From the NCBI RefSeq assembly GCF_028583425.1, contig NC_072796.1, positions 141,555,464 to 141,619,463 on the forward strand: a DNA stretch of 64,000 nt, written 5' to 3'. This document shows positions 5,691 to 30,439 of the stretch, piece by piece; position 1 is the stretch's first letter, and every line of letters starts with the position of its first letter. A program made the translations under genes and the position numbers. Below the pieces are notes generated by a model, which worked only from the letters and a program-made list of their open reading frames with translations, was not told the origin of the DNA and made no database searches. Origin of the DNA: Eublepharis macularius (Eukaryota > Chordata > Lepidosauria > Squamata > Eublepharidae).

Positions 5691-6247
5691 TGTGCAGGTT
5701 CTACCAAAGCTGAAAGACAGGACAACGGTATAGCACAATCCTGCATGTACTCAAAAAAAAAGAAAGTTGGGTGGGAATGCGCCAACGTCATTTATGATAG
5801 GGTGCAGATAAAGAACACGTTTTCTATTTTGGACCTTTTTTTTTCATGACAAACACCCACAGAACATGCATGAGAATGATGTGTGTGCAAGGGGAATTCT
5901 CAAAGTAGATCAAGAAGATGCGATTTTGGGACTGGGACCCCCCCCCCTTCCCGCCAAATTGGAACATGTGAAAGCGGCCTTTGTTTGCCAAGGGAAAACA
6001 TCCTCTTTTCCGAAGAGTTAAGACAGCAAATGTTTCCCAAGCAGCAGCAACTTCCCTTTAGCCACGCAAAGAGTGCCTAACAAAACTGGTTCTTCCAGCA
6101 GTATTGATGGTACAGGAGCCTTTCATTTCTGTGCACATGACGTGCTGATTCTATCCCATGACTATGGTGGCCAATGTTTCTACTAGTCACTGTATTGCGC
6201 CTTTAATAGTAAAAGGGTACACAATGAATAATTAATGAGGCAATATT

Positions 6248-6268
6248 ACGTCACCAGAGGTGACGTAA
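6248..6268. promoter_or_regulatory. Perfect near-terminal palindrome, left copy
   Basis: The 21-bp site TACGTCACC-AGA-GGTGACGTA is a perfect inverted repeat with a 3-bp centre, about 40 bp from the element end. Each arm carries a CRE half-site (ACGTCA). The equal copy in the right TIR is at 21338-21358. It could bind an ATF/CREB-type factor or act in replication or end recognition; the function is inferred. Confidence 0.6.
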
Positions 6269-6660
6269 GCAATGGCGCCCCCCTGTGACGTCACCGGAAA
6301 TGACGCCATCAAGCCCCGCCGCGGGAAATGATGCCATCAAGCCACGCCACCGGAAATGATGTGAGCAAGCTGCGCCGCATCCCCTGACGCCATCGGAAGT
6401 GACGCCAGCAGACCACTCCCCCTGCCACATCACCAGAATTGGCGTAAGCTGGCCACCCCCACCCATGACATCATCGGAAGTGACGGGTATACCATGCATA
6501 TTAATTAGGCATTTTGCATATTTGCTGTATCATAGGAAGTGACGTGTGCAGGCCACCCCCTCCCCTATTACCTCAGCGGAAGTGACATGGGAAGGCCACA
6601 ACCCCTGCAACGTAACTGGATCCCCTTTCTCAAACACCACCCACTTCCACGTCAGTGAAC
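6248..6660 (+). promoter_or_regulatory. CRE/ETS-like site array in the left TIR
   Basis: Degenerate units of about 30-35 bp repeat a GACGTCA-type CRE core beside a CCGGAA(A/G)TGACG-type ETS/CRE composite. A consensus TGACGTCA lies at 6286-6293. More than ten related units can be counted by eye. The array precedes CCAAT boxes and the left early ATG at 6858, so it is the likely early promoter/enhancer. The mirrored array in the right TIR would serve the right early gene. Confidence 0.6.
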
Positions 6661-6699
6661 TTCCGCCTGCTGCACCCCACCCCGGAAATGGGGTAACCA

Positions 6700-6857
6700 T
6701 CACAGGTATTGGCTGAGTATGGCCGTGTGACCCCTCTATCAACACGCCCGTTCACCCCCAACCAATAGGATGCTCTTAGACACACCCACACAAGGTGGTT
6801 TTTAGGAAAGAAGCCATTTTGCGCTAGCAGACACGCGGCTGGGCTCTTGCTGATAAC
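6700..6857 (+). promoter_or_regulatory. Proximal early promoter and leader (left)
   Basis: The inner TIR carries ATTGG (near 6708) and CCAAT (near 6760) boxes with no obvious TATA box, then a leader to the ATG at 6858. The right TIR has the same layout reading leftward to the ATG at 20776. Confidence 0.5.
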
Positions 6858-7985
6858 ATGGATACTCCTGTGAGGCCCCTGGAACTTATCAGCCCACCCC
6901 CGGTGGTGAAGCCTAAATTCAAAAGACGTTATATTAGCACCAGCTCTGATGACGATAGAGAGCTGGTACCGTGCAAGCTTCAGTTTTCCGCACCTGTTCA
7001 CGACGAGGAGACTCGAACATCTGCGGACATGACTGACAGTGAAATGGTCCAAATATTGAATGAGCTGATGGAAGTGTCCCCAGAATTCCCAGAACTGATT
7101 TCACAAGTGAACTCTCAAACACAGGTAATTTGAATGAGGGAAGGAGAAGGGGTAGCGGGGTCAAAAGAGGTACTGAATGTAAATGGCGCAGAGAGCTGTT
7201 AAGAAAAAAATAAAAGGTGATCTTTACTGTTTTATAGGGGCCCTCCTTCAATGTTCTGGAACTTCCTGAATTGACTTCCACTGTGCCTTTGGGTAACCAA
7301 GAAACACAATTTAACTTCAGCAGAGAATACCCAGGTAAGGCATGGAATCTTTAGTTTTTTTGGGGGGGGTATCTGGGGGGTCAATTATGTTGCTATAATT
7401 TGGAAAAAACCCTAAAATGCATTTAAACCTTCTTTATAGGCCACATCTGCAGGAGCAGGGGGAATGATAACCTCACATGAAAGGCTCAGGTCTATGAGAA
7501 GCCTTCTTCAGCTGAATATTGACCGGGATATTGACTTTATTCCACCACGCCAGCGCAAATCCGCCATGAGGAGTATTGTAAGAGCAGCAGTTTATGGCAT
7601 TCTGAGCCACTGTATAAATGGATATTTATTTGAATCTTGCGAGGGCTGCACGAATGACGCCCCGGGCCAGAGAGACCACGAATGCCTAATATGGACTGAA
7701 AATGAGCTGGACAGGAAAGTTAAATTTGTCTGTGATGAAATATGTGCGAGCTCTGCTCTGTTAATTATAAGTTCACTTGCCTATTGTCTACAATGCTTGG
7801 TTTTCACTCAGGAAAATATGGATGAAGTTTACTCCTTAATAGCCCAAGTTGGCAATGCAGTAAATTCCCAAAATGCCCTTGAAAATTTTTTGAAAGATTC
7901 TGATAAGAGAATGTTGCAGCACATTGAATGCTTAATCAAGGGAAGGTATTTCAGAACTTTTTTTGCCCGTCAACAAATGAAATAA
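6858..7985 (+). CDS. Left early gene, three exons, Cys/His motif protein
   Basis: Exons read as 6858-7124, 7238-7334 and 7453-7985. Exon 1 ends CAG/GTAATT in phase 0, exon 2 is preceded by TTTTATAG and ends CCAG/GTAAGG in phase 1, and the CAG at 7450-7452 is the acceptor that keeps frame into the long last exon. The product would be about 298 residues. The N-terminal part is acidic and starts with the TIR-encoded MDTPVRP; a basic FKRRY stretch and a Ser/Asp patch follow. The last exon has a C-x2-C...H-x-C motif (CEGC...HEC) that could bind zinc, within a helical-looking domain. I do not recognise a named family. Position next to the TIR promoter suggests an early regulatory or host-modifying role (inference). 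The upstream TATAG at 7439 is an alternative acceptor but breaks frame. Confidence 0.65.
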
Positions 7986-8400
7986 ACAGTGTTAGATCAT
8001 ATTCACAACCTGATATTCAAGTCAAGACATTGACTTGGGGGGGGGGGGGCTAATTAAATCAAGACTGGAATCCTTTTCAGAAAAGCGTGGCTGGAAGGGG
8101 GGGGCGGGTGAGGTAGTTTCCTTCAGCCATATGGTTTCCCCATTGTGCTGAGGGACCACCTGATGGACACAGCCAATCGCAGAGGAGTCTTATTGAACCA
8201 TTTTTGAAATTCATTGGTCCTTAGTTACCTACAACTTGTCTGGGAGGCGGGCAATTCAATCCAGCCTACAACATGTGCTTTCAGAAAAGCATGATTGGAA
8301 TGTCTGGAGGGGACACACCTTCAGGCACATGGTTTCCCCATTGTACTGAGGTCCACCTGAATGCCACAGCCAATCACAGAGGTGCTTTACACACAATGAA
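7986..8400 (+). promoter_or_regulatory. Repeated CCAAT-bearing block upstream of gene 2
   Basis: Two diverged copies of a ~120-bp block lie at about 8075-8200 and 8279-8395. Each has a 'ttcagaaaagc' start, 'tggtttccccattgt' middle and an 'agccaatc' CCAAT box. A partial third copy is in an intron near 9395-9450. A GC-box-like 'gggaggcggg' is near 8240. Together with the downstream noncoding exon this looks like the promoter of the second gene. Confidence 0.45.
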
Positions 8401-8481
8401 GCCAAGGTTTCATAAAGACCGGGCTAGGTTAGTCTTGCTCTCTTTTTCCTGGAACTCAAGACAGAGCCTGACCATACCCAG
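8400..8481 (+). other. Probable 5' noncoding exon of gene 2
   Basis: A consensus splice donor (CCCAG/GTGAGT) ends at 8481. Plausible acceptors before the ATG at 8963 are at about 8900 (CTCCATAG) and 8925 (TTTTACAG). The exon start is a guess, placed below the CCAAT-rich block. Confidence 0.4.
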
Positions 8482-8962
8482 GTGAGTTGACCCCCCCCCC
8501 CCCCGCTAGACAACCTTCTTTCTTTGGGAGAATGTGGAAAAATGGGGGGGGGCTACTAGTTTTTCTCTATTACTTGCTGCATTTTGGGTGGTAGTTGGTA
8601 ACTTAAATTGGGGCAGATGAGGCTTTTTAAAAAAATTGCCATTTTGTGGGAGAAAACCACCTTAATGTTTCTATATGCTGCTATTTGAGGTGGAGATTTA
8701 CCATGTGTTCTTGGAAGTTTGAAACCTGTGCCCTGGGTTTTAAGATTTAGATTGCTATGTTAGTGGAGAAATTAAAGCCACATTTCTACAATTTTTCTTT
8801 TGGGGTGTTAATTATTTAGATTGTGATGTAGGGTTTGAAGGTTTCTGGCGAGGAAAGCTTTTACTTCTAAAATGAATTGTCCCTCCATAGATAGTGAAGG
8901 CCTTCCCAGCATCTTGAATTTTACAGCCTCACTAATAAGTTCACTGGAAAAAGAGACCAGCT

Positions 8963-10645
8963 ATGGCCAATCCAAATGATGGTAAATATGCATACTCTTA
9001 TAAATACTTTTTTTTAAAAAAAAAGGTTTTTATAACTTAGCACGAAAGAAATTTTCTATGGTTTGTTGTCTCCTGTTTAGTTCAGCATAGCCATCCTGAA
9101 AGTGGAAGAGATGATGATGGGGCATCGAAGCCATGCTTGTGCAGAAATTCTAAAGAAAAAAATACAGCTCCACAGCTGACTCTTTGGGGTGCTATGAAAC
9201 ATAAAAAACCACAAGCAGGTATATTTTATTATTTGTGGCGCACTATGGTTTGCGGTGTTTTTGACAAACTAGCACATTATGGATGAGGAAATGGTTTAAA
9301 ATAAAATGGAGCTTTTTCCCTTACTGGGGCATGTCTGGGCATGTCTTGGAGGGGGGGGGGGAGTGGAATGAGTGGTATTCACGTCATGCCTGAAGGCCAT
9401 GTGCTTTCATAAAGCAATGGCTGAGTATGGGGAAGTTTTTTCCTTGGGCTGGGGCAGGGGTAAATATGCGTGCTCTTATAAATACTTGTTTTTTAAAAAA
9501 GGTTTTTTTATAACTTAGCACGAAAGAAATTTTCTATGGTTTGATGTCTCCTGTTTAGTTCAGCATAGCCATCCTGAAAGTGGAAGAGATGATGAGGGGC
9601 CATCGAAGCCATGCTTGTGCTGCAATTCTAAAGAAAAAAATTTAGCTCCACAGCTGACTCTTTGGAGCACTATGAAACATAAAAAACCACAAGCAGGTAT
9701 ATTTAATTATTCACAATGATCACAATTTTGAGGCTTTTTGACAAACTAGGGGGCTTCATGAAATGCTATTCTCAAGGTTTACTGAAGTTATCTTTTGTTT
9801 TCCATACAGACCGTGACTCTCCTAAAAGGTCCTCAAACCAGAGCTCCCCGTTGCAGCGCACAAATGTGACCCGGCAGCAGAAACCCGCCAGCAGGCTTTC
9901 AAACCCGCACACCATACAGCAAACCTGCAAGAAAGGATTGGCAAACCCAACCAAGCCAGAAGCATGCGGTAAATCAAAAAGAAAACACGCACACCAAACT
10001 GACTTTAAACAGACACAAAAGGGTGGGTCTTCAATGCCACCCTGCAAGAAACCAAAAATTGACATTTCTGATACTACTGCAGCTGTTAAAGCTATATGTG
10101 ATAGGATTGCACTGTTACATGGTAATTTGGATAGGCTAGGTTATAAAGATATCAAGGCACTGACTACCGCAGTTGAAAATGTAGTAAATCTAAAAATCTC
10201 TGATACTACTGCGGCTGTTAAAGCTATATGTGATAGCATTACACTGTTACATGGTAATTTGGATAGGCTAGGTTATAAAGATATCAAGGCACTGACTACC
10301 GCAGTTGACAATTTATTAAATCTAAAAATCTCAAATCTAAATGTGCAGCGAGGGGGATTCAAGCAAAAAGGGGCAGGCCGGGTCAATGCTCACCTGACCC
10401 CATACCGGAGGAAAAGCAAATCTTTGAAATTCAAAAACTTATGGAAAAGAGTGATACTTAAACTCCTAAATAATGCTAAACATATTAATTCCCGGCCAAA
10501 ACGCAGTGCTTCCATTTTAAAGCTGATAAGTAAAAGACAGAGGGCTAAAGAGCCAAATCAACACATGGCTGGTGGTTGTCGCCTCATCTCAGAGGAGGCG
10601 CCAACTACCCCCCCATTCAGCAAATGGAACTACAGCACCCCCTAA
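8963..10645 (+). CDS. Second spliced gene, basic protein with duplicated exon and repeat
   Basis: Exons are 8963-8981, 9081-9218, 9559-9696 and 9810-10645. All junctions are phase 1, so the frame holds throughout and gives about 376 residues. Exons 2 and 3 are copies of each other (138 nt each), both encoding SHPESGRDD and PQLTLW. The last exon encodes a Lys/Arg/Pro-rich region with a nuclear-signal-like PPCKKPK. Next comes a 44-residue unit (ISDTTAAVKAIC...) repeated twice in tandem at 10064-10195 and 10196-10327, then a very basic C-terminus. The family is not recognised. Overlap with the polymerase frame and the basic, probably nuclear character suggest a DNA-binding or replication accessory role, for example a terminal-protein-like factor (inference). 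Confidence 0.65.
10064..10327 (+). repeat. 132-bp in-frame tandem repeat, two copies
   Basis: Units 10064-10195 and 10196-10327 differ at only a few bases and encode 44 residues each. A remnant of a third unit starts at 10328 (ATCTCAAATC). The unit looks helical, so the duplication doubles a small domain. Confidence 0.9.
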
Positions 10646-13600
10646 AGAAAACACGCTAGAATTACCTCCACAAGAATCCCCACCAGCCACCCCCCATTCA
10701 TCAATTGACACTGCAGCTAGCCCTATATGGGCCACCCCTGAAGAATACTCTCAGGAATTACTTACGCAAGAAAACCACCCATCTATCGCCCAACTGGCAA
10801 ATGACAGTGCTGCTGTCTCCATTGATGAAAGCCCCCAAGAATTGTCCCCCAACAATGATTCACCCAAAGTTTACTTAGAAAGGGTGGGGCAGTGGGAACG
10901 ACAATTGTGGCGCTTGCCAATGGATCAATATGTAGAACTTTTCAGATTTGTAAACTTGGAACAGTTAAACCACCCAGTACTTGTGCAGGAGGCAATTCGT
11001 CAATCCATTCAGGGGCTTCTTGATGAGATGAGGGCTAGAGTCCAGGAGGGTGATTTAGTACAGCTCCATCTTGAGGGTGGGGGGTTAAGTAATCCTCTTC
11101 GCTCAGTGAGAAGGCCGGTTGGAGACTTCCCTGCCGAGGAATTCATAAGCCAGATGTCCAGTCTTATGCAAAGTAATGCGGAAATCCACCTTCATGGAAG
11201 CCTGCAGCTAGTCATGACAGTAATTAGAAACAGGGGTGGGAGGGGAAGGCGGGTAATAAGCACTATCCTCTATAGTGAGGTAATCCATAAGAAAAAACAG
11301 CACTTAGTTGATCTAAGCAACACTGATAGTAACTTGTGCTTTGGGGGTAGTCTCTTGGCGGTTATGTCAGAGAGGATGCTCACCATTCCGGAATTATCAG
11401 AAAGAGCCCGCAATTTGTATAGAGAACTAGGTATTTCAGAGGATAAAAAAATATTATTATCTGATGTGGTCACGTTTGAGAAACATTTAAAGGTAAATAT
11501 AGGAGTAGTTATCAATGGGGGCAAAGGTTGGGAAATCTTTAGAAGTGGGGATCCCATACATCCTGAAACATACTTTGTACTGCTTTATGAAAATCACTTC
11601 TATGGCACTAGGAACATAAAGGGATTCTTTGGCCAGAGAAATTATTGCTCTGTTTGTGGTAATGTTTATAGCCACTCACACACCTGCAAGTATCGGTGCC
11701 GCTTATGTTTGGAGCCAAAATGTGTTGTTCAGCAGGAGGAAAGGTGCCCTACTTGTAAAATATATTGCAAATCAAGGTCCTGTTTGGAAAGGCACATGAA
11801 TTTGGCAACATGCGCAGCTAAAATATTTTGCAATTCATGCCGCGCCTATGCTCCAAAGAAGCACACATGCAGGGTGCGGTGGTGTAAGCAGTGCAAAGAG
11901 CCCATTGGGGACATAAACAGCCACCGCTGCTACATGCCCCCAATTAAAGAAACTAAAATAACAAGCAAATATATATTTTATGATTTTGAATGTACACAGG
12001 AATCCGGAATACATATCGCAAATTACATTTTCGCTATGGGGCTAGAGGAATGTGATTCTTGGGAATTTAAGGGTGGAAAGTGCGTTTCAGACTTTGTTAA
12101 AAAATTCATCAACAAAAAGTACAAGGATTACACTTTTCTAGCCCATAACGCAAAAGGATATGATAGTTACTTTATTGTTAGGCAGTTGTTGGTTGAAAAG
12201 GTGGATGTAGACCTCATTACACAAGGGGGAAAACTGATGTGTGTGACTGCAAAAAAGTTTGGCATTAGGTTTATAGACAGTTTAAACTTCTTACCTATGA
12301 AGCTTGCAAAATTGCCACAAGCCTTGGGCTTTGAGGGGTGCAAGGGCTTCTTCCCCCATTTCTTTAACACTGCCGCAAATTGGGGGTATGTCGGCCCCAT
12401 GCCTAGGGTGGAGGATTATGGCATTGATAATATAATGCCAGGTGAGAGAGCGGAATTTCTGTCCTGGTACCAGGATAACCAAGACAGTGTTTTCAACTTG
12501 CAAAAAGAGTTGTCTTATTATTGCCAGCAGGATGTTAAAATCCTGAGAAAGGCCTGCCTCCTATACAGGGAAGAAATTATTTCCATCTCAAAAATTGACC
12601 CTTTCCAATATATTACTCTCGCTGGTGTTTGCATGGCCATGTTCAGACACATGTTTTTAAAACCAGACACAATTGCACTGCTGCCACATGACAATTACCA
12701 CAGACAGACCAAAAGATTTTCCACCCCATCTATACAGTGGATCCTGTATGTCCAGCATAAAGAAGGTATCGAGATACAGCATGCTCTGAAAGGTGGAGAG
12801 TTAAAAGTAGGACCTTATTTTCTTGACGGTTTTGCAGAAGTTGGTGGGGCCCCCACAGCCTTTGAGTTTAATGGGTGTTTTTTCCACGGCTGCCCCATCT
12901 GCTTCAGCCCAACTGACAGAAATCCGCTGACTGATTCTACGTTTGGCAAGTTATACCACCGCACACAGATGAAGGCCAGTTTTCTGAAAAGCCAGGGGTT
13001 TGCAGTTAGGACCCTGTGGGAGCATGAGTGGAGGGAGATGATGGAGGATGACAAGGATCTTGGTGCTTTTCTAAGGGAAAAGAAACTGCCCTCACCTCTA
13101 TGCCCTAGAGATGCCCTTTTTGGCGGGAGGACAAATGCCGTCTGTTTGTATTACAAGCCCCAGGCTGGTGAAAAAATACACTATTATGACTTCACCAGCC
13201 TGTACCCTTTCGTAAACAAGACAAAGAAATACCCTATTGGTCACCCAATCATTCTTTATAAGGACTTTGCCCCTCTCTCTGAATATTTTGGCCTTGCCAA
13301 AGTTAAGGTGCATCCACCTCGAGGGCTCCTTTACCCTGTTTTACCCTTCAAGGTGGATAGCAAACTTCTGTTCCCACTGTGCTGCACATGTGCAGAGGCA
13401 AAACTGAAAGTGCGCTGCGCTCATTCAGCTGAGGAAAGGGCCCTAGAAGGGACCTGGTGTACCATAGAGCTACTTAAGGCTATAGAAAAGGGGTACAGTG
13501 TGATGTCTATTAGTGAAGTGTGGCATTTTGAAGAAAGCTCTGAGGAACTGTTCTCAGAATATATTAAAATGCACCTCTGGCAAAAACAAGAAGCGTCTGG

Positions 13601-14435
13601 GTACCCTAACTGGTGTACAGATGAGGAAAAAAGGGAGAAATATATTAAGGATTACCTAGAGAAAGAAGGTGTTCAGTTGCGCGCTGAACACATAGCTAAG
13701 AACCCTGCAAAGAGGCAAATTGCAAAATTATTTTTGAACTCTTTGTGGGGCAAGTTTGGCCAGAGGTCAAACTTGGTGAACACTAGCATTGTGAGGGACC
13801 CAACCAAACTTTTAGAGTATGCATTTTCTCCAGCATATGAAGTTTCCAGCTTTGATGTAATTGATGACGAGACAGCAAGCGTGTCCTGGAAGCACGCTAA
13901 AGACAGGCACACATTATCAGGGAATACTAATGTAATGATTGCCTGTTTTACAACTGCATACGCAAGGCTGGAACTTTATGAGCTGCTAGATAAATTGCAA
14001 GATTGTTGTTTGTATCATGATACCGATTCTGTCATATTTGTGAGTCGAGACGGGGACTGGAATCCCCCTTTAGGAGACTACTTAGGTGACCTCACAAGTG
14101 AGATCCCACCAGATCAATATATTACAGAATTCACATCGGCTGGGCCAAAGACATACGGCTACAGATTATCTGGGGGAAAGGTGTGTATGAAAGCCAAGGG
14201 GATTACTCTTAATGTTTCCAATTCTGTAAAAATAAACTTTGACACGCTGAAGGACCTGGTGCTAGACTACGGCTCAGAGCAGACTACTAAAGAGATCCGA
14301 GTCCAGCAGCCCTCCATCATAAGAGACAAAAATCAGTGGCTCATTCATACAGGGCCACTGGAAAAAACATTGAAAGTCGTTTATGATAAGAGGGTCCTAG
14401 TGGAAGATTTCAAAACTTTACCATACGGTTTTTAA
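10530..14435 (+). CDS. Protein-primed-type family B DNA polymerase
   Basis: The open frame runs from 10530 to the stop at 14435, about 1,290-1,300 codons, with no ATG until LPMDQY near 10917. The true N-terminus may come from an upstream exon, as for adenovirus polymerase, or from a non-AUG start (GTG at 10572). From the N-terminus there is a Pro/Ser/Thr-rich tail, an unassigned domain, and Cys/His clusters at about 11650-11930 (CSVC, CRLC, CPTC). The exonuclease motifs follow: YDFECT (~11975), HNAKGYD (~12145) and YYCQQD (~12520). The polymerase motifs are DFTSLYP (~13185), KLFLNSLWGKFG (~13725) and YHDTDS (~14015). All catalytic acidic residues are present, so the enzyme looks intact. It would copy the linear genome from its ends. 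It overlaps the preceding gene by about 115 nt and is followed one base later by the ATPase ATG. Confidence 0.92.
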   Translation, partial: VKDRGLKSQINTWLVVVASSQRRRQLPPHSANGTTAPPKENTLELPPQESPPATPHSSIDTAASPIWATPEEYSQELLTQENHPSIAQLANDSAAVSIDESPQELSPNNDSPKVYLERVGQWERQLWRLPMDQYVELFRFVNLEQLNHPVLVQEAIRQSIQGLLDEMRARVQEGDLVQLHLEGGGLSNPLRSVRRPVGDFPAEEFISQMSSLMQSNAEIHLHGSLQLVMTVIRNRGGRGRRVISTILYSEVIHKKKQHLVDLSNTDSNLCFGGSLLAVMSERMLTIPELSERARNLYRELGISEDKKILLSDVVTFEKHLKVNIGVVINGGKGWEIFRSGDPIHPETYFVLLYENHFYGTRNIKGFFGQRNYCSVCGNVYSHSHTCKYRCRLCLEPKCVVQQEERCPTCKIYCKSRSCLERHMNLATCAAKIFCNSCRAYAPKKHTCRVRWCKQCKEPIGDINSHRCYMPPIKETKITSKYIFYDFECTQESGIHIANYIFAMGLEECDSWEFKGGKCVSDFVKKFINKKYKDYTFLAHNAKGYDSYFIVRQLLVEKVDVDLITQGGKLMCVTAKKFGIRFIDSLNFLPMKLAKLPQALGFEGCKGFFPHFFNTAANWGYVGPMPRVEDYGIDNIMPGERAEFLSWYQDNQDSVFNLQKELSYYCQQDVKILRKACLLYREEIISISKIDPFQYITLAGVCMAMFRHMFLKPDTIALLPHDNYHRQTKRFSTPSIQWILYVQHKEGIEIQHALKGGELKVGPYFLDGFAEVGGAPTAFEFNGCFFHGCPICFSPTDRNPLTDSTFGKLYHRTQMKASFLKSQGFAVRTLWEHEWREMMEDDKDLGAFLREKKLPSPLCPRDALFGGRTNAVCLYYKPQAGEKIHYYDFTSLYPFVNKTKKYPIGHPIILYKDFAPLSEYFGLAKVKVHPPRGLLYPVLPFKVDSKLLFPLCCTCAEAKLKVRCAHSAEERALEGTWCTIELLKAIEKGYSVMSISEVWHFEESSEELFSEYIKMHLWQKQEASGYPNWCTDEEKREKYIKDYLEKEGVQLRAEHIAKNPAKRQIAKLFLNSLWGKFGQRSNLVNTSIVRDPTKLLEYAFSPAYEVSSFDVIDDETASVSWKHAKDRHTLSGNTNVMIACFTTAYARLELYELLDKLQDCCLYHDTDSVIFVSRDGDWNPPLGDYLGDLTSEIPPDQYITEFTSAGPKTYGYRLSGGKVCMKAKGITLNVSNSVKINFDTLKDLVLDYGSEQTTKEIRVQQPSIIRDKNQWLIHTGPLEKTLKVVYDKRVLVEDFKTLPYGF

Positions 14436-14436
14436 T

Positions 14437-15126
14437 ATGGATGTACGCTGGAAACATCCATTTTCCGCAGTAGTGGCTGGTCCTAGCAACTGTGGGAAAA
14501 GTTTTTTTGTAAAAAACATTTTGGAAAATGCCCAACATGTACTGTCTGTCATGCCTGAAAATATTGTGTGGTTTTATAGCTGCTGGCAGAATCTGTATGA
14601 TGAAATCCTCTGTAAATACCCCTTTGTAAAATTTGTGGAAGGACTGCCTGAAACTCTTAATGATGATCAACTTCTCCCCACCAATAAAGTAAATCTTATC
14701 ATAGTTGATGATTTGATGAACTCAGCTTGTGAAAATCCAGAAATTGAGAAAGCCTTTACCAAATACGTGCATCATCGGAATCTGAGTATCTTATTTATCA
14801 CTCAGAATATTTTCTTTCGTGGGAAAAGCAACAGAACCATCAGTTTAAATACCAAATATCTAGTGTTGTTTAAAAACCCCAGAGACAAGTTACAGATTGC
14901 AACACTGGCCCGTCAAATGTACCCGGGGAAGTCCCAGTTCTTTCTGGAGGCCTTTGAGGATGCCACACAAAACCCTTATGGGTATTTGGTTGTAGATTTA
15001 AATGCCTCTACACCAGATTCTCACAGGTTAAGAACAGGACTTTTCCCACCAGAGTGGCCTGCAGTGTATGTCTTAAAAACAAAACCGGCTTCCTCTGGGT
15101 ACAAAAGAAAGCAGCCTGCGCTCTAA
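14437..15126 (+). CDS. A32/FtsK-HerA-type genome packaging ATPase
   Basis: The 229-residue protein has a Walker A loop GPSNCGKS near residues 15-22 and a Walker B segment NLIIVDD near residues 84-92, followed by a sensor-like ITQN. This is the pattern of poxvirus A32-type and Polinton packaging ATPases, which pump DNA into preformed capsids. The ATG lies one base after the polymerase stop, so the two may share an mRNA. No disabling change is seen. Known from the family: the role in packaging. Seen here: the motifs, length and gene position. Confidence 0.9.
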   Translation: MDVRWKHPFSAVVAGPSNCGKSFFVKNILENAQHVLSVMPENIVWFYSCWQNLYDEILCKYPFVKFVEGLPETLNDDQLLPTNKVNLIIVDDLMNSACENPEIEKAFTKYVHHRNLSILFITQNIFFRGKSNRTISLNTKYLVLFKNPRDKLQIATLARQMYPGKSQFFLEAFEDATQNPYGYLVVDLNASTPDSHRLRTGLFPPEWPAVYVLKTKPASSGYKRKQPAL

Positions 15127-15236
15127 CCCCCCTGTTGTCCCCGTGGCCTTCAAAGGACAACATGTCCAGGCGTATAAAGAGAAATTTGGCACTCCTAAAA
15201 CTACTCATTAAAGCTACTCCACAGCAGAGGAAAGCC

Positions 15237-15501
15237 ATTTTATGTTCATAGATCCAGAGGAGTTAGCCGTGTTAGTCTGTAGTAGCAAAATCAAAAAGAG
15301 TCCAGTAGCACCTTTAAGACTAACCAATTTTATTTTATTTTAGCATAAGCTTTTGAGAATCAAGTTCTCTTCATCAGATGCCTGATCAGTTCAGATCAGG
15401 CATCTGATGAAGAGAACTTGATTCTCGAAAGCTTATGCTACAATAAAATAAAATTGGTTAGTCTTAAAGGTGCTACTGGACTCTTTTTGATTTTATGTTC
15501 A
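15237..15501. mobile_element. Palindromic Penelope-like tail insertion with 12-bp TSD
   Basis: Two tail copies face each other around the centre near 15390 to form a 241-bp hairpin-capable insert at 15249-15489. It is flanked by the direct repeat ATTTTATGTTCA (15237-15248 and 15490-15501). The same tail text (GAGTCCAGTAGCACC...) is found many times in the window. The insertion postdates the virus. Confidence 0.85.
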
Positions 15502-15570
15502 GCATCAGATGATCTGGTCGCGGCTATCTCAGAAATCGCCCTCAACACTTTAAAAGGCAACATCCCTCTA

Positions 15571-16606
15571 TCATAAGAACATAAGAACATAAGCAAAGCC
15601 ATGTTGGATCAGGCCAGTGGCCCATCCAGTCCAACATTCTGTCACACACAGTGGCTAGAAATCCAGTGCCATCTAAAGGACTGTCAGTGAGGCCAGGACA
15701 CCAGAAGCCCTCCCACTGCCTTCCTTCCAGCACCAAGACAACAGAGCACCACCTCCCCACAAAGAGAATACCATCTATCTCCTGTGGCTAATAGCCACTG
15801 ATGGACCTCTGCTCCATATATTTGTCCAGTCCCCTCTTGAAGCTGGCAATGCTTGTAGCTGCCACCACCTCCTGTGGCAACGAATTCCATGTGTTTATCA
15901 CCCTTTGTGTAAAGTAGTATTTTCTTCTATCTGTTCTAACCCGACTGCTCAATAATTTCATAGAGTGCCCACGAGTTCTTGTATTGTGAGAAAGGGAGAA
16001 AAACACATCTTTCTCTACCTTCTCTAACCCGTGCATTATCTTGTAAACCTCTATCATGTCTCCCCTCAGTCGTCTTTTCTCCAGGCTAAAGAGCCCCAAG
16101 CGCCTCAATCTTTCCTCATAGGGAAAGTGTTCCAACCCTTTAATCATTTTAGTTGCCCTTCTCTGTACTTTTTCCAGTGCTATGATATCTTTTTTAAGGT
16201 GTGGCAACCAGAACTGTACACAGTATTCCAAATGAGGCCTCACCATCGATTTATACAGAGGCATTATGATACCGGCTGATTTGTTTTCAATCCCTTTCCT
16301 AATAACCCCTAGCATAGCATTAGCTTTTTTTATGGCAGTCGCACACTGTGCTGACGTTTTTAGTGAGTTATCTATCATGACTCCAAGATCTCTCTCTTGG
16401 TCAGTCTCCGCCAGTTCAGACCCCATCAACTTGTATTTATATTTTGGATTTTTGGTTCCAATGTGCATTACTTTGCACTTGGCTACATTGAACCTCATTT
16501 GCCACATGGATGCCCACTCTTCTAGCCTCGAAAGATCCCTTTGGAGTACCTCACAATCCTCTCTGGCTTTCACCACCCTGAACAATTTCCTCGGCAGATA
16601 TGCATA
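15571..16606 (-). mobile_element. CR1/L2-type LINE 3' fragment
   Basis: On the - strand a 265-residue open segment (16585 to 15788) carries the C-terminal reverse-transcriptase region and conserved tail of CR1-like LINEs (KVQRRATKMI, LRRLGLFSLEKRRLRGD, NSLPQEVV). The 3' end has repeated TTATGTTC units near 15571-15592. It is 5'-truncated and sits inside the viral core-type ORF. No clear target duplication was seen. Confidence 0.85.
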
Positions 16607-16758
16607 CTGAGGAAAAGGCGAAGTTTCATCAAGAACCTGAGTAACAAAAGAGTATCTCTAAAAAGGAAGAAGCAGTTGGTGAAACAGTCTGGTGGGTTTA
16701 TTGCCCCTCTGTTAAGCTTCGCTATTCCTCTCTTAACAGGGCTTTTAACAAGTCAGTA

Positions 16759-17460
16759 ATGGAATATGCAGAAAAAATGTATTTGGTTCCTAGCCAGCAG
16801 TTAGCACAATTAAGGGCCCCCCCTCCTCCTAAGGAGGAAAACATCAGAACTGCCACAATGTATTCCTTAGATGCCGAAATGAAGGGGATTCTTCAAAGGC
16901 GTGACTTGACAGAATATGAGAAGGCCAAGCATTACGATGCCCTGCTTCAAAAATTTTTAACACATGTGAAACAGGGGGAAAGTGAAAAATCTAAACTGAG
17001 CCTGTTTCTGCCTCAGCCAGAGGATTCTTCTGTAGAAACCCCTAAAATTCCTGATGCGATCTTCCAAGAAATAATAGACACTTTGCCTGTTAGATATAAG
17101 AAACATGCAAAAGTGCTGTTAAACAAAATGAGACAAAACAAAAGTGTTTCTTCTTGGGATGACCGTGGAGTCTTTGTGTACAAAGGAGAAAATATCCAAG
17201 GCTCCAATATGCTGGACTTGGTGAAGGGGGTTACTCAAACACACACCCTGCCTAGCCATCGCATACCCACAGGCTGGGATGCTTTCATGAAGGCCATGGC
17301 TGAGCTGAATGTTCCATCTTCTGTGGTGGGAAACCCGATTAATCGCCAAGCTTTCGAGCATCTAAAGAACCCGGTCTCCTCCAAAGAGATGCCGGCCCAT
17401 TTTCGTAGAGCTTCTACAAAACGAAGAGGCAGCTTGCCAGCTGCATGGATAAATTTGTAA
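16759..17460 (+). CDS. Conserved-type Polinton late/virion protein, function unknown
   Basis: The 233-residue protein starts at an ATG overlapping the previous stop (TAATG). It has an N-terminal PSQQLAQLRAPPPPKEE region, a predicted helical middle, and a Ser/Arg-rich C-terminus (STKRRGSLP). Helical segments such as YEKAKHYDALLQKFL suggest a structural or scaffolding role. Its place between the core-type ORF and the convergent capsid genes fits a virion-associated protein. The frame is intact. An AATAAA-type signal follows at about 17468-17475. Confidence 0.7.
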   Translation: MEYAEKMYLVPSQQLAQLRAPPPPKEENIRTATMYSLDAEMKGILQRRDLTEYEKAKHYDALLQKFLTHVKQGESEKSKLSLFLPQPEDSSVETPKIPDAIFQEIIDTLPVRYKKHAKVLLNKMRQNKSVSSWDDRGVFVYKGENIQGSNMLDLVKGVTQTHTLPSHRIPTGWDAFMKAMAELNVPSSVVGNPINRQAFEHLKNPVSSKEMPAHFRRASTKRRGSLPAAWINL

Positions 17461-17467
17461 TGCTTTA

Positions 17468-17475
17468 AAATAAAA
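17468..17475 (+). terminator. Poly(A) signal of the rightward genes
   Basis: AATAAA lies just downstream of the stop at 17460, in the short gap between the convergent gene sets. Confidence 0.6.
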
Positions 17476-17538
17476 ATTTTCCTTTTAAAATTTATACCGT
17501 GTTTGTTTGTTTGTTTAAACAAAACAGACAGACAAAAA

Positions 17539-18105
17539 TCACATTTTAAGCCCACATGGGGACGCTTTATTGAAATTCAATATTGTTGTGGAATTCGTTG
17601 CAAGATACACATGCACAAAGAGGTTTGGAACAAGTTTGGGCATGCCCTTCTTTTTTGCAAACTCTTCCACCATTAGATCATTTTGAGCTAGGTCATCAGA
17701 ATACAGTTCTTGGATCTGATCAAAGGAAAGTCCTTTATTGCGCAGCTGTAGAAAAAATATGCAGTGATAGCCACAGACCACTGAGTCGTCCGCCTGTAGC
17801 TGTCTGGGTTGGAACGCAGTCCTGTTGGCATTTTTTCGCAAAAAATTCACAATGGTTTTGGGAAACAGGGGGCTGTCGGGAGGATGTCCATAAGAGTCAA
17901 AAAATTCACCACACCCATCCAGTGTCAAGTATATGGCAAGCCAGTGTTCTCCAGGGAGGTTGTGGGGGTGGGTATTCACCACTAGGCTCACAGGCCTTCG
18001 ATGCAGTCTCTGTTTGGGGAGCCAGTCAGCTGGAAACACTCCAAGGAAAGTCTTTTTGGTGTGAGGGCTTGTAGATAACACAGATGTCAGCTGTAGGGTA
18101 TCCAT
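17539..18105 (-). CDS. Adenain-type cysteine protease (C5-like)
   Basis: The 188-residue product starts at ATG 18105 (MDTLQ); an ATG five codons upstream would overlap the capsid stop and is less likely. The catalytic pattern is in order: His in GEHWLAI, Asp in FFDSYG, Gln in LQADD and Cys in CGYHC, matching the His-acidic-Gln-Cys layout of adenovirus protease. It would cleave virion precursors during maturation, and a matching site (MYGAG) lies in the neighbouring pVI-like protein. The length is near that of adenain (about 200). The frame and catalytic residues look intact. An AATAAA sits within the last codons on this strand (near 17570), so the poly(A) signal overlaps the coding end. Confidence 0.9.
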   Translation of the reverse strand: MDTLQLTSVLSTSPHTKKTFLGVFPADWLPKQRLHRRPVSLVVNTHPHNLPGEHWLAIYLTLDGCGEFFDSYGHPPDSPLFPKTIVNFLRKNANRTAFQPRQLQADDSVVCGYHCIFFLQLRNKGLSFDQIQELYSDDLAQNDLMVEEFAKKKGMPKLVPNLFVHVYLATNSTTILNFNKASPCGLKM

Positions 18106-18106
18106 G

Positions 18107-19412
18107 TTACATATAGTCAAATAAAACGCTTCTTCTATGATTTATCTCAATAACGTTGTCAAAAACCCCATAGACAATCATGTTAACGGTGTTAGGCAGT
18201 GCATTGGCAAAACGTATTTCAGCACGCAGATTACCGGTTTTAATCAAGGAGTAGTGGTCCGCACATTCCTGATCTGGAGACAGGTCAAATGCAAACAGCG
18301 TGTAGCCCTGAGCAAACTCCTCACGGTTAACTAACAAAGATCTGTCTTTCATATGTTTACCAGCCGCCTGAACCAGATGCATGTATTCCCGCACACAGTT
18401 TCCATCTTCAAAGTTGGGTTGTAGAGGTTTAGCAGGTACTTGCTCGCCGTCCAGGTACAGTGCCACAAAATTGATGTCATAATGCTTAAAGTTAAATGGG
18501 TTTTTATTATGGGCTCCGCTGAAGGAATCGTTATCTACCAGTCCTATAACTAAAAGCTTGGGTAATTGCCCCAAAAACAAATTCTCTTGGTTGCTGACAC
18601 GGCTCCCTGCGGGGATGCTAAACACTTTCATGCCCACGCGATCCACAGGGTATTTGGCATTAGCTGTAAAGAGCGCCTCTGCGTGGCCTAAACGGACACC
18701 AGGAGCTACTCTTACTTTTTTCACAAAAAGGGAAGCAGACAAGATTTGTAATTTGCACCCCCTATTTGGACCGTCTGTCATGAGGCAAAAGGCATCTCTG
18801 CTGCGTGTCAGTTTAATTTTGACATCAACTCCATTTACCAGCAGCTTCTCTTGAAAAAACAGATCACTGTGGAGGCGCCCCAGCAGGTCTATTTTTCTGC
18901 TTTCAGCAGTCAGGGCTGCTCTTTTAACAAACCCTTTGTTATCTCCATCCAGGGCAGTTGATTCATGATGTCCAGGTGTATCTTTGTAAAACAGGCCTGC
19001 AGAGAATTGGGTGGATAGTGTGTCTTCACTATAATTGAGCACTGATTCTATAAAGGCTCTGTAAGGATAGCAGTTGTTACTCTGGCTGATGAGGCGGTCT
19101 CCCAGAGTCACGTCCAGCTGGCTAAAGATAGAGGCAATCGGGTAGTTCACCAAACTTACCCTTGCATTTCTGTCAAGGTCTGTACCATCATCTTTCACGA
19201 TTCTGCAACACAGGTAGAGTGTTGTTTAAATCCATGTAGTCTTCGCCATTTCCCGCGATGAAAAAGTCCAGTGGTGCTGATTCTGACAAAGCCGCCAGGG
19301 GTGGGACTTTAATAAATAGACACCTCTCGATGCTCGTTTGCGTAGGGGCTATTTGGAACAGGTCTAGTTCTGATTTGGTGCATTCTTCTGAGCCGCTGTG
19401 AATAAAAGCCAT
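18107..19412 (-). pseudogene. Major capsid protein (hexon-like), frameshifted
   Basis: An N-terminal part of about 70 codons starts at ATG 19412 (MAFIHSG) and reads to a stop at 19188. The rest, about 363 codons, lies in another frame from about 19217 to 18107. The two parts are collinear: the first contains SELDLF and GNGEDYMDL, and the second opens with DDGTDLDRN and SQLDVTLGD. These are hallmarks of the Polinton/adintovirus double-jelly-roll capsid protein. The break lies near 19210-19225 and fits loss of one base. Otherwise the gene is full length and open. It ends one base before the protease ATG. As it stands it could not give a whole capsid subunit. Confidence 0.88.
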
Positions 19413-19418
19413 TGCTGC

Positions 19419-19883
19419 TTAAAATATGTCTCCAGGGCTCGGAGGCTGTCTCCCTGCGCTTCTCTTTGCCTTCCGCTTCTGAGGCCCGCGGCGCTTCACA
19501 GCTTTTCTTTTAAAGGGGTGTGGAGGGCCAGTTAATGGAACACGTGATGCTTTTCTTTTAAGCCCTCGTTGCCTTTTAAGATGCATGAGGCCTGACCCCT
19601 CTTGCGGTGTAAGTGGGCTCATTTTATTCAGAACTGCTTCAGAAACATGCCCCACTACATCTTTAGCAATATTTCGAGCTGCATTTTTTACATGGGGCTT
19701 TATGAGCTCAAATCCTCTTCTCAAAAGAGGGGCGGCTTTCCGGAAAAGGCTCCGGAATATGCCCCCAACACCTGCCCCATACATAACAGGGGCTCCTTGG
19801 AATCCAGGAAGGGCGTTTCCAGCTTGGTTCCTGTAGTAATGCCTGTAAACATCTGGGTCGCCATAGCTTTTTAAGATGACCAT
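19419..19883 (-). CDS. pVI-like membrane-active / virion protein
   Basis: The 154-residue protein has a short N-terminal segment, then MYGAG (residues 34-38), which fits the adenain cleavage pattern (M/I/L)-x-G-x-G. Next comes an amphipathic-looking basic helix (GIFRSLFRKAAPLLRRG), then a Lys/Arg-rich C-terminus. Adenovirus pVI has the same plan: cleaved by the viral protease to expose a membrane-lytic helix. The gene lies between the penton remnant (stop at 19894) and the capsid gene (ATG at 19412), in the usual late cluster. The frame is intact. The pVI link rests on architecture, not on alignment. Confidence 0.7.
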   Translation of the reverse strand: MVILKSYGDPDVYRHYYRNQAGNALPGFQGAPVMYGAGVGGIFRSLFRKAAPLLRRGFELIKPHVKNAARNIAKDVVGHVSEAVLNKMSPLTPQEGSGLMHLKRQRGLKRKASRVPLTGPPHPFKRKAVKRRGPQKRKAKRSAGRQPPSPGDIF

Positions 19884-19893
19884 CTTTATGTGC

Positions 19894-20109
19894 TTAAAAG
19901 ACCAGGGCTTTCCGAGGACGAAAGTGAAGCTTCACGATCACCTTACCCAGACGAAATGGCACGTTCTTGTTCTGATCCGTCTTAATTTCAATAGTGATAG
20001 TGTCTATGTGGTGCTTACTGACAGGTACGTAATGAGGCTTGTCATAAGTAATGGTAATACGCTCATTGCTTTCTCCACGAACTGGGACACACCGGAGTAG
20101 GGTGTGTTT
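19894..20109 (-). pseudogene. Penton-type minor capsid protein, C-terminal remnant
   Basis: A 71-codon open stretch ends at TAA 19894-19896. It has the C-terminal signature of the Polinton minor capsid (penton-type) protein: VPVRG, DKPHYVPV, IDTITIEI and VPF..GKVIVKLHF. There is no start codon, and an in-frame stop (20110-20112) lies directly upstream, with no splice acceptor nearby. The family protein is several hundred residues long, so the N-terminal majority is missing. Only 26-28 bp separate the remnant from the poly(A) signal of the upstream gene, which suggests an internal deletion joined them. Confidence 0.75.
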
Positions 20110-20137
20110 TTACCATTCAAGGTAAAAAATAAAATGT

Positions 20138-20143
20138 TTTATT
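20138..20143 (-). terminator. Poly(A) signal of the right early gene
   Basis: AATAAA on the - strand lies about 20 bp past the stop of the right early gene. An opposite-strand AATAAA overlaps the region (20128-20133). Confidence 0.65.
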
Positions 20144-20163
20144 GTGACAAACTAACTCCTCTT

Positions 20164-20776
20164 CTACTCTTCACTCTGATTAAGGCTGGGGCAAAAGCAT
20201 GACACGCAGGAGATGTTCATATCCACATGGCTGCCGATGTGCAGATTCTCAAAAGCTTGGATAACGTCCTCATCAAACTGGTGTAACAGAATGAAAAAAA
20301 AGGCATAGTTCAGTGAAAAGGCCCCTCAGAGGCCACCCCCAACTTCATTAGCCACCCCATTCACAAACACAAATATTGTTTTACCTCATAACCTGTGAGT
20401 GTTGAACTGTGCTTTCTATGTCCATAGATTCATTTAAAGGTCCATCCTCCTCCTGGTCCTCTGCCACATCCTCAAACTCCTCAGCAGGGGTCCGGAAAAC
20501 ACACCAGAGAGGGTTGGGTATCCCCAAATCCATTTCATCTGCAGGGGGGCCGGTTAACTCCGTTTGTATTCCATGCTGGTTTCCCCATGTTTGTAGCATT
20601 GGATTTTCTATGTTAGCGGGGGGAATTAGATCCAGCTCCGGAGACTTGGCCTGCTCACCTGCCTCAATCTTCCCGTTGCGAATCCGGTAAGTACAATACA
20701 TAGGGAGGAGCTCTCCAAAGTACATCTTAGATGCCAACGGTGTCTTAAATTCCTGGGGCCTCACAGGAGTATCCAT
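20164..20776 (-). CDS. Right early gene, two exons, TIR-encoded start
   Basis: Exon 1 is 20776-20393 (128 codons, ending CAG/GTTATG). Exon 2 is 20277-20164, after a strong pyrimidine-rich acceptor (TTCTGTTACACCAG). Both junctions are phase 0 and give about 165 residues. A better-looking donor nearby (GAG/GTAAAA at about 20383) would break frame. The protein starts MDTPVRP like the left early gene because both starts are inside the TIRs. It has a Pro-rich middle, an LWCVF segment followed by a strongly acidic stretch (EEFEDVAEDQEED), and a C-terminal CVSCFC cluster. No family is recognised. By position and promoter it is an early gene; the acidic and Cys motifs suggest protein-protein contacts (inference). 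Confidence 0.65.
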
Positions 20777-21398
20777 GTTATCAGCAAGAGCCCAGCCGCG
20801 TGTCTGCTAGCGCAAAATGGCTTCTTTCCTAAAAACCACCTTGTATGGGTGTGTCTAAGAGCATCCTATTGGTTGGGGGTGAACGGGCGTGTTGATAGAG
20901 GGGTCACACGGCCATACTCAGCCAATAGCTGTGATGGTTACCCCATTTCCGGGGTGGGGTGCAGCAGGCGGAAGTTCACTGACGTGGAAGTGGGTGGTGT
21001 TTGAGAAAGGGGATCCAGTTACGTTGCAGGGGTTGTGGCCTTCCCATGTCACTTCCGCTGAGGTAATAGGGGAGGGGGTGGCCTGCACACGTCACTTCCT
21101 ATGATACAGCAAATATGCAAAATGCCTAATTAATATGCATGGTATACCCGTCACTTCCGATGATGTCATGGGTGGGGGTGGCCAGCTTACGCCAATTCCG
21201 GTGATGTGGCAGGGGGAGTGGTCTGCTGGCGTCACTTCCGATGACGTCAGGGGATGCAGCACAGCTTGCTCACGTCATTTCCGGTGGCGTGGCTTGATGG
21301 CGTCATTTCTGGTGACGTCACAGGGGGCGCCATTGCTTACGTCACCTCTGGTGACGTAATATTGCCTCATTAATTATTCATTGTGTACCCTTTTACTA
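20747..21398 (-). repeat. Right terminal inverted repeat
   Basis: This is the reverse-complement partner of 6207-6887. It contains the start codon and first residues (MDTPVRP) of the right early gene. The near-identity of the two arms suggests a young insertion or arm-to-arm correction. Confidence 0.92.
21338..21358. promoter_or_regulatory. Perfect near-terminal palindrome, right copy
   Basis: This is the mirror of the site at 6248-6268, again about 40 bp from the outer end. Its conservation in both arms follows from the TIR identity. Confidence 0.6.
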
Positions 21399-22686
21399 CT
21401 ACAGTGGCCTGATGTGTAGACATTTGTTGGCAATTCTGTCTACATTCATGCTCTAATAAACTTTGACTGCCCTTAAAGACACAGCCAGACAGGTTCCCTC
21501 CACCCACATGCTTCAGTTGGCAACATTCCCTCTATCTAGCCTTACCTGTACGTTGTGTCCCTGCGATTTCGTTTGTCGCTTGTACATATTGTAAATAAAT
21601 AGATTCCCACCAAACTGGCTTAAAACATTGGTTCTTTTACTTTCTCAGGGAAGGAGGAGAACATCTGTGTGTTGGGTGTTCCTCAGAAATACCTACTCCT
21701 GCAAAATTTCTCGTGAATTGACTTCAAACAAAAAGAAATCCTGATGTTATTTGCAGCTGGCTCCCAAATGCATCTCTCCCACCCCCCCTCCATTATCCAC
21801 TGGCTCAGCAGTTCTCAAAGTTGAGCATTTTTGCCTTTCTCAGCACTTTTTTCACAAGCCACTGAGAGATTCCTCCAGTCTGAACCCGAACGGATAAGGG
21901 TCTGATTTCAAATGTGTGAACCAGTTAATTGGGTCCTGGCGCGTGCTTTTTGCAAGATTCATGGTTCTGGGTGAGGCTGAAATCATTAGATATGCTTATC
22001 CCAAGCTGAATTAGACAATTTAATTGTCCTTAAGCATGCCACCCTCCCTAGGATATGTTCTCACACACAGCCTCCCTGCCAACACAGTGTCAAAAGCCTT
22101 GATTTGCTTTTAAAATCTCGACCCGCCCCCCGCCGAATTAAACTCACAAAACAAGTGTCGTCACAACAACCACAGTGTTAGTGGAAGATTGCAAGTGTCT
22201 TTGAATTCTTGGAAGGTTTGAAATGAGTGTGTGGTTTGTTAACGTTCACTGAAAATGGATGCTGAATGTTTCATGGTACCCAACAAGACACAGATTAAAT
22301 GGCTGAAGGAGAGCAAAGCAGGAACCGATGTTTCTTTTACATAAAATAAAAAGTATACAGATTAAAACAAGCATGTTTTCAAAAGCATTAAAAAGTAAAT
22401 TTAAAAAAATAATAACATATGGCATAACCCTTAGTATTGCACTGTGCTTATGAGTGTACCGATACAGATCCAGAGAGAAAAAAACCCAAAAGATTTTAAT
22501 CAAAACTGAAATGGTGTGATTGTATATGTGTGGGCTTACCATATAATTCAAAATTTCTGAGCCTGCACGTATCAGGCAATGATGGAAACTGAGATTTTTG
22601 TTTGATTTAGAATTGTACACTATGTTACTTACACTGAAGAAGCAAGACTTACATATTCAGAGGGGTAGCTGTGTCTCTCTCTTCTG
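21399..22686. other. Intergenic DNA, no gene recognised
   Basis: AT-rich right flank of the viral element. No coding or clear repeat signal was seen by eye. Confidence 0.5.
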
Positions 22687-30310: not shown

Positions 30311-30439
30311 GGGTATTAAAATATGGATACACTATTGATCTATATAGGATATACCATAATCCGAAGGAAAATTTAGTTTACTCCTAGAATGGTGTTCGAC
30401 TGTATGGCTAATCCAAGCCCTGTCTTCCTTTCATTTTAG

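What the first reader, a model, noticed from the sequence alone, without database searches (positions are those of the whole stretch)
6207..21398. Large endogenous adintovirus/Polinton-like element upstream of ZC3H3
A 15.2 kb TIR-bounded element keeps an open family B polymerase, packaging ATPase and adenain-type protease in a reptile-type genome, about 6.4 kb from the ZC3H3 start. In the inner stretch I compared, the TIR arms differ at two bases in about 235, pointing to a young insertion or continued correction.
Basis: partly seen in the sequence, partly recalled or inferred. Interest (0 to 1): 0.9.

Follow-up and report, generated by a model that had tools for sequence, protein, structure and literature searches.

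The report
Broken copy of a young Maverick family
The stretch is a damaged copy of a virus-like jumping DNA (Maverick/adintovirus) whose younger sister copies in the same genome are nearly identical, keep long unbroken genes, and include mirror-image copies that look like trapped replication errors.

Summary
The observation largely holds: a terminal-repeat-bounded Maverick (adintovirus, now Eupolintoviridae) lies at about 6205-21400. The copy is not intact. Its polymerase frame is broken near the N end, the capsid frame is split, the integrase and most of the minor capsid gene are deleted, a CR1 fragment and a host repeat sit inside, and no target-site duplication was found. Its terminal repeats differ at 8 of 643 sites plus 3 gaps, so it looks older than most sisters.

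The genome holding the window carries two young coding families, A (the window's, ~15.7 kb) and B (mostly ~17.2 kb; polymerase 54% identical). Thirteen loci keep unbroken polymerase, integrase and capsid frames; a published survey found five intact elements in all tetrapods, by a stricter eight-gene test. A third, B-derived set, C, has no large frame in the parts read.

Seven loci (A 2, B 1, C 4) are mirror-image elements with seven different junctions, each with an exact 5- or 6-bp duplication. I read them as snapback products of end-primed replication that were then integrated. That step is inferred; repair after integration remains possible. My paper searches listed no report of such palindromic Mavericks.

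The parts
6205..21400 (.). Whole Maverick element; right end ACTACT, left end AAT AGT
6208..6879 (+). Left terminal inverted repeat (about 672 nt)
20753..21397 (-). Right terminal inverted repeat (about 645 nt); 8 of 643 differences plus 3 gaps to the left arm
6858..7133 (+). Left terminal ORF, 91 aa; start and first codons (MDTPVRP) inside the TIR
7464..7985 (+). Accessory ORF, 173 aa, no Pfam match above cut-off
9707..10645 (+). N-terminal part of the polymerase gene, in a different frame from the rest
10530..14435 (+). Family B DNA polymerase, main frame of 1301 aa; strings YDFEC, DFTSLYP, NSLWGKFG, YHDTDS present (motif meaning recalled)
14437..15126 (+). Packaging ATPase (GPSNCGKS, IIVDDL; motif meaning recalled)
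15249..15489 (.). Host interspersed repeat around a local palindrome (arms 15287-15387 / 15394-15494), absent from a sister piece
15574..16588 (-). CR1-type LINE fragment (name recalled; weak RVT_1 match of ORF 15788-16657), absent from a sister piece
16759..17460 (+). PZ-position ORF, 233 aa
   Evidence: position as in PMC8097293
17539..18120 (-). Adenain-type protease
18107..19225 (-). Major capsid protein (by position), larger C-terminal part
19191..19418 (-). Major capsid protein, N-terminal piece in another frame
19419..19883 (-). PW-position protein, 154 aa
19897..20109 (-). C-terminal remnant of the minor capsid protein
20102..20112 (.). Deletion point: about 1.67 kb with the integrase and most of the minor capsid gene, present in sister piece L069, is missing here
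20381..20776 (-). Right terminal ORF, 131 aa, same first codons as the left one (MDTPVRP)

Best explanation
The window element is a dead, older member of Maverick family A. Young sisters of this family, and of a second family B, keep unbroken core frames and have recently spread through this genome by integrase-mediated insertion. They replicate as linear DNA from their terminal repeats with their own polymerase. Now and then a growing strand folds back (loops of 39-175 nt in six of seven cases), primes on itself and is copied back to the starting end. The result is a mirror-image molecule with the same terminus at both ends, which the integrase inserts like a normal genome. Shown: copies, frames, duplications, palindromes, loops, short microhomology at two junctions. 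Inferred: protein priming, snapback before integration, present activity.
For: Family A: 13 of 13 fetched pairs outside the window have exact 6-bp duplications and AGTAGT ends. Frames without stops in A and in B: polymerase 7 and 8 loci (36 of 128 candidates scored), integrase 12 and 11 (107 of 6949 scored), capsid 10 and 11 (72 of 72 scored); all three together at 7 A and 6 B loci (my intersection of the three tables). Nine young A polymerase pieces differ at 3-16 of about 4730 sites, nine B pieces at 2-28 of about 4380. Selection between A and B: pS 0.70-0.87 against pN 0.22-0.30 in three genes. Palindromes: A at C5:113.85 Mb, arms 0 substitutions of 5650 with 3 gap events; A at C2:47.63 Mb, 3 substitutions outside the loop, 6 gap events; C at C2:80.89 and C5:134.77, mirror-image in the end and centre pieces read; C at C6:86.5 and C2:164.3 by arm hits and centre; B at C2:216.35, left-type ends on both sides and an inverted polymerase junction. 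Loops 59 and 137, 154, 70, 175, 39, about 1.93 kb in B with a filler that repeats adjacent bases. Microhomology of 6 and 3 nt at the two A junctions. All seven have exact 5- or 6-bp duplications.
Against: No reads, transcripts or free DNA were seen. The capsid label rests on position: no Pfam or PDB match and both fold predictions failed. The B palindrome has a long loop. The two A junctions lie 35 bp apart, which random snapback does not predict. Several other A and B loci in the same tables have stops, splits or truncations. Palindromes could form after integration through the near-identical terminal repeats. Only three of eight core genes were counted genome-wide.
Confidence: 0.72

Rival explanations
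1. The palindromes arose after integration: a break inside an ordinary inserted copy folded back or used the near-identical terminal repeats as template, replacing the right part by an inverted left part while keeping flanks and duplication.
For: Terminal repeats of ordinary young A copies are nearly identical, so they could pair; flanks and duplications would be kept just as seen.
Against: Needs a separate repair event at each of seven loci with different junctions; six of seven loops are short, which joining of unrelated break ends would not favour; ends stop exactly at the terminus.
Confidence: 0.22
2. The palindromes are assembly artefacts (fold-back reads or misjoined copies).
For: Long palindromes are a known failure of long-read libraries (recalled); no reads were available.
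Against: Fold-back reads would mirror the flanks too, but the flank bases shown beyond the duplication differ on the two sides at all seven loci, and a duplication is present. Some arms carry differences: 3 in the C2:47 pair, 2 and 3 per 3 kb in two C pairs.
Confidence: 0.06
3. The window element is simply a fossil Maverick in a genome with nothing unusual.
For: The window copy is broken at several places and lacks a duplication.
Against: Nine A sisters differ by at most 0.34% over about 4.7 kb, and many loci keep unbroken frames.
Confidence: 0.05
4. TIR similarity within the window copy reflects continued gene conversion rather than age.
For: The window arms differ at 8 of 643 sites; each differs from arms of other copies at 21 or more of about 650-690 sites (which includes some bases inside the TIR edge).
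Against: The same pattern follows from ordinary ageing after insertion of a molecule with equal arms; 10 of 11 other pairs show 0-3 differences.
Confidence: 0.2

Closest known systems
Vertebrate Mavericks (family Eupolintoviridae, formerly Adintoviridae; genera Alphadintovirus and Betadintovirus; genus placement not tested)
   Same: Two inward-facing modules in the published order, (AGT)2 ends and 6-bp duplications in family A, size within the published 12.7-24.6 kb (PMC8097293, section 3 parts 1-3 of 7 read; renaming in PMC12451622, passages seen)
   Different: The window copy lacks integrase and duplication. This genome has 13 loci with three unbroken core frames, the survey five intact elements in all tetrapods (eight genes). 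B and C end in AGAAGA and show 5-bp (13) or 6-bp (7) duplications. Palindromic and C-type derivatives are not mentioned in the parts I read.
Terrapene box turtle adintovirus
   Same: Reptile-associated adintovirus with integrase, penton, ATPase and polymerase genes (PMC10812802, passages seen)
   Different: Sequence not held here, so no direct comparison was made
Snapback genomes of adeno-associated virus; symmetric recombinants of adenovirus
   Same: Self-complementary defective genomes (AAV: PMC8235507, start of abstract in the listing; adenovirus case recalled)
   Different: AAV does not use protein priming (recalled); here the palindromes are integrated with target-site duplications

Membership tests
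[quoted passage not shown]
   DNA_pol_B_2 E=1.1e-51, motif strings; window frame broken at the N end. Protein priming itself was not testable.
Maverick / Eupolintoviridae | Retrovirus-like integrase, in the window copy | tested here: not met
   Missing at about 20102/20112; no hit listed at the window locus
Maverick / Eupolintoviridae | Retrovirus-like integrase, in sister copies of the same family | tested here: met
   rve E=1e-13 and Chromo E=1.2e-8; PDB integrases down to E=7.3e-8; 12 A loci unbroken
[quoted passage not shown]
   Right position and conserved between A and B (52-82%), but no Pfam or PDB match above threshold and fold models failed
Maverick / Eupolintoviridae | Packaging ATPase and adenovirus-type protease | tested here: inconclusive
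   Pfam matches below cut-off; motif strings present (meaning recalled)
Maverick / Eupolintoviridae | Terminal inverted repeats with repeated short end motif | tested here: met
   left end of the window copy reads AAT AGT
Maverick / Eupolintoviridae | 6-bp target-site duplication, in the window copy | tested here: not met
   None found
Maverick / Eupolintoviridae | 6-bp target-site duplication, in sisters | tested here: met
   Family A 13 of 13 pairs. B/C: of 22 pairs, 13 have exactly 5 bp, 7 exactly 6 bp, 2 none, so only partly met there
Maverick / Eupolintoviridae | Two-module gene order | tested here: met
   searches compared with PMC8097293
Betadintovirus (genus) | Groups with reference members in a tree | not tested
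   Protein database switched off; no relatives in viral contigs
Snapback (symmetric defective) genomes | Same terminus at both ends and near-identical arms up to a short central loop | tested here: met
   Six of seven loci with loops 39-175 nt; B locus loop about 1.9 kb
Snapback (symmetric defective) genomes | Exists as free replicating DNA | not testable with these tools
   Only an assembly was available

The most novel reading that the evidence does not exclude
A living reptile-type lineage carries at least two Maverick families young enough to be still active. Their replication errors, snapback palindromes, are themselves inserted by the integrase, and one B-derived, palindrome-prone element (C) behaves as a satellite that spreads in trans. 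The palindromes are then direct genomic traces of linear, end-primed DNA replication in vertebrate Mavericks.
Probability: 0.5. Interest if true: 0.85.

Novelty: new variant of a known kind. Interest (0 to 1): 0.7.

Why it matters
Mavericks are thought to be viruses that replicate as linear DNA by protein priming, but no virions have been observed and nearly all tetrapod copies in the published survey are fossils (PMC8097293). A genome with many near-identical coding copies, and with inserted mirror-image replication errors, would let that replication model be tested in a vertebrate. It also suggests how non-autonomous Maverick satellites arise.

Tried and rejected
Relatives of the polymerase in viral contigs: none. 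The 101-nt hairpin at 15287-15494 looked like a replication structure but matches repeats elsewhere in the window. A full-length inverted dimer at C2:216 was expected to hold a second polymerase at 216353300-216357600; it does not, and a strand-switch junction was found instead. The 98.8% BLAST identity of the C2:47 arms at first suggested age; most differences lie in the loop. While checking this report I dropped my earlier reading that B and C always make 5-bp duplications: the table shows true 5-bp and true 6-bp cases. Ectopic recombination as cause of the missing duplication in the window copy was considered; loss of the left duplication with two terminal bases is simpler; neither was tested. 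The depth of the inverted arms in the four C copies that share a non-palindromic centre could not be measured (search did not complete). Species was not identified; gecko-like from assembly size is only a guess.
Full report
1. The element in the window. Two inverted arms bound a region of about 15.2 kb. The right end is (ACT)2 and the left end AAT AGT; the commonest published vertebrate motif is (AGT)2//(ACT)2, with 6-bp duplications in intact elements (PMC8097293, section 3, parts 1-3 of 7 read). The window copy has no duplication. Gene order is left terminal ORF, accessory ORF, polymerase, ATPase, PZ on the plus strand, and protease, major capsid, PW, minor capsid remnant, right terminal ORF on the minus strand. 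This is the published two-module order without integrase. Both terminal ORFs begin with the same codons because the start lies inside the terminal repeats.

2. Damage. The N-terminal part of the polymerase is in a different frame, while seven unbroken A sisters run 1521-1563 aa. The capsid frame is split. Compared with sister piece L069, about 1.67 kb is missing at about 20102/20112; that stretch holds a 383-aa integrase with rve and chromo domains and most of the minor capsid gene. A host repeat and a CR1 fragment between ATPase and PZ are absent from sister piece L115. TIR arms differ at 8 of 643 sites plus 3 gaps.

3. Sisters in the same genome. The TIR search gave 42 matches, 40 of 62 candidates scored. 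I fetched ends of 13 pairs outside the window, one divergent pair and 8 single ends. All 13 pairs have exact 6-bp duplications; 11 are non-palindromic and show 0, 0, 0, 0, 1, 1, 1, 1, 1, 3 and 19 differences over 662-664 TIR sites. Eight pairs span 15,711-15,722 bp (from the coordinates). Of ten A polymerase pieces compared, nine differ from each other at 3-16 of about 4730 sites, the tenth (L053) from them at 63-72, and the window from all at 82-93. With an assumed neutral rate of 1e-9 per site per year (not from a call) the nine would have separated within about 2 million years.

4. Two more sets. Polymerase matches at 55-56% fall at 9 loci with frames of about 1420 aa, 8 without stops. The TIR search of this family B (40 of 94 candidates scored) gave 11 paired elements, 8 of them 17.19-17.25 kb. 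Nine B polymerase pieces differ at 2-28 of about 4380 sites. B and C termini read AGAAGA. Of 22 B/C-type pairs examined, 13 have an exact duplication of 5 bp and 7 of 6 bp; two pairs at C1:241 Mb have none and share one inverted flank. Family A gave 6 bp in 13 of 13. Set C matches the B terminus at 92% over 93 bp and 85% over 239 bp and, near the C2:80 centre, the left region of B at 82-90%. The parts of C scanned for frames hold none over 143 aa; about 2 kb of its arm was not read.

5. Coding state. Loci with unbroken frames: integrase 12 A and 11 B or B-like, capsid 10 A and 11 B or B-like, polymerase 7 A and 8 B. The three coincide at 7 A and 6 B loci. Other loci in the same tables have stops, splits or truncations. 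The published survey counted 134 intact elements, five of them in tetrapods, by eight genes, TIRs and duplications (PMC8097293). My test covers three genes, so the comparison is indicative only. Between A and B synonymous sites are near saturation (pS 0.70-0.87) with pN 0.22-0.30. Within A, the main polymerase part gives dN/dS of 0.13-0.54 against one reference copy, on few changes, and the N-terminal part up to 0.59; within B changes are too few to judge.

6. Palindromes. Two 11.4-kb A elements carry the left end twice in mirror image: arms with 0 substitutions of 5650 (3 gaps), and 3 substitutions outside the loop (6 gaps). Both switch strand in the polymerase gene, at sites 35 bp apart on the forward strand, with 6-nt and 3-nt exact microhomology and loops of 137 and 59 nt (143 and 78 if imperfect matches are not counted). 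One B element (C2:216) has left-type ends on both sides and a strand switch in the polymerase with a loop of about 1.93 kb and a filler repeating adjacent bases; one arm holds roughly 18 kb of extra DNA in at least three stretches. The C-arm search (40 of 2875 scored) found the arm as an inverted pair at 8 loci: four have palindromic centres with loops of 154, 70, 175 and 39 nt at different axes, and four share one non-palindromic centre at 99.3-100%. A further C piece at C4:186 Mb lies head to head. All seven palindromes and the four other C loci have exact 5- or 6-bp duplications.

7. Mechanism. In end-primed strand-displacement replication (established for adenovirus, recalled; expected for Mavericks in PMC8097293) a single strand is exposed. 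A 3' end that folds back on a short inverted match primes synthesis back to the starting terminus. Copying this hairpin from its end yields a palindrome with two identical termini, a fit substrate for the integrase. This predicts same-type ends, near-identical arms, short loops, small microhomology and normal duplications. These were seen, except for the long loop in B; microhomology was measured at the two A junctions only. The model does not by itself predict the 35-bp clustering in A; a pause site or size selection might. Repair inside integrated copies is the main rival.

8. Limits. The capsid label rests on position. No external Maverick sequence was reachable, so there is no tree. No reads, no other individuals, no relatives. 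Counts are lower bounds where not all candidates were scored. Searches for prior reports were judged from listings; besides PMC8097293 I saw passages of PMC12451622, PMC10812802 and PMC6431247 and the abstract of PMC9683012. None of this showed palindromic Maverick insertions or a recent multi-copy Maverick burst in a reptile. The library holds open-licence papers only, and the paper that named adintoviruses is not held.

Noticed in passing
G000 C8:35218676 (locus L114, 2608-3901): An A copy runs forward from its left end, then continues in reverse from a more inner point; an inversion that is not a simple snapback.
   Followed up: partly
G000 C1:241494975-241513959 and C1:241672735-241683196 (L103-L106): Two diverged B-like elements whose four ends share the same flank in inverted orientation, as if inside a segmental inverted duplication.
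   Followed up: no
G000 C4:186476969-186480884: Two C arms head to head with little room for the terminal repeats between them.
   Followed up: no
B and C ends, L072-L107 and L130-L138: Target-site duplications are a mixture of 5 bp (13 of 20) and 6 bp (7 of 20), while family A gives 6 bp in 13 of 13; integrase spacing may be looser in B.
   Followed up: partly
window 10067-10332: 132-bp tandem duplication inside the N-terminal polymerase region, also present in sister copies such as L065.
   Followed up: partly
window about 8980-9270 and 9460-9750: Spaced direct repeat of about 290 bp in the accessory region, also seen in sisters at about 88%.
   Followed up: no
G000 C16:4.50 Mb, C6:29.8 Mb, C11:17.7 Mb, C3:6.74 Mb, C4:164.6 Mb and others: Older, broken Maverick lineages coexist with the young ones.
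   Followed up: no
L108 (C arm) 2170-2900: Part of the C arm is about 75-87% like many dispersed repeats, so C arms seem to have taken up host repeat DNA.
   Followed up: partly
window 30412-31824: 470-aa open stretch that may be a ZC3H3 exon (recall only; no Pfam match).
   Followed up: partly
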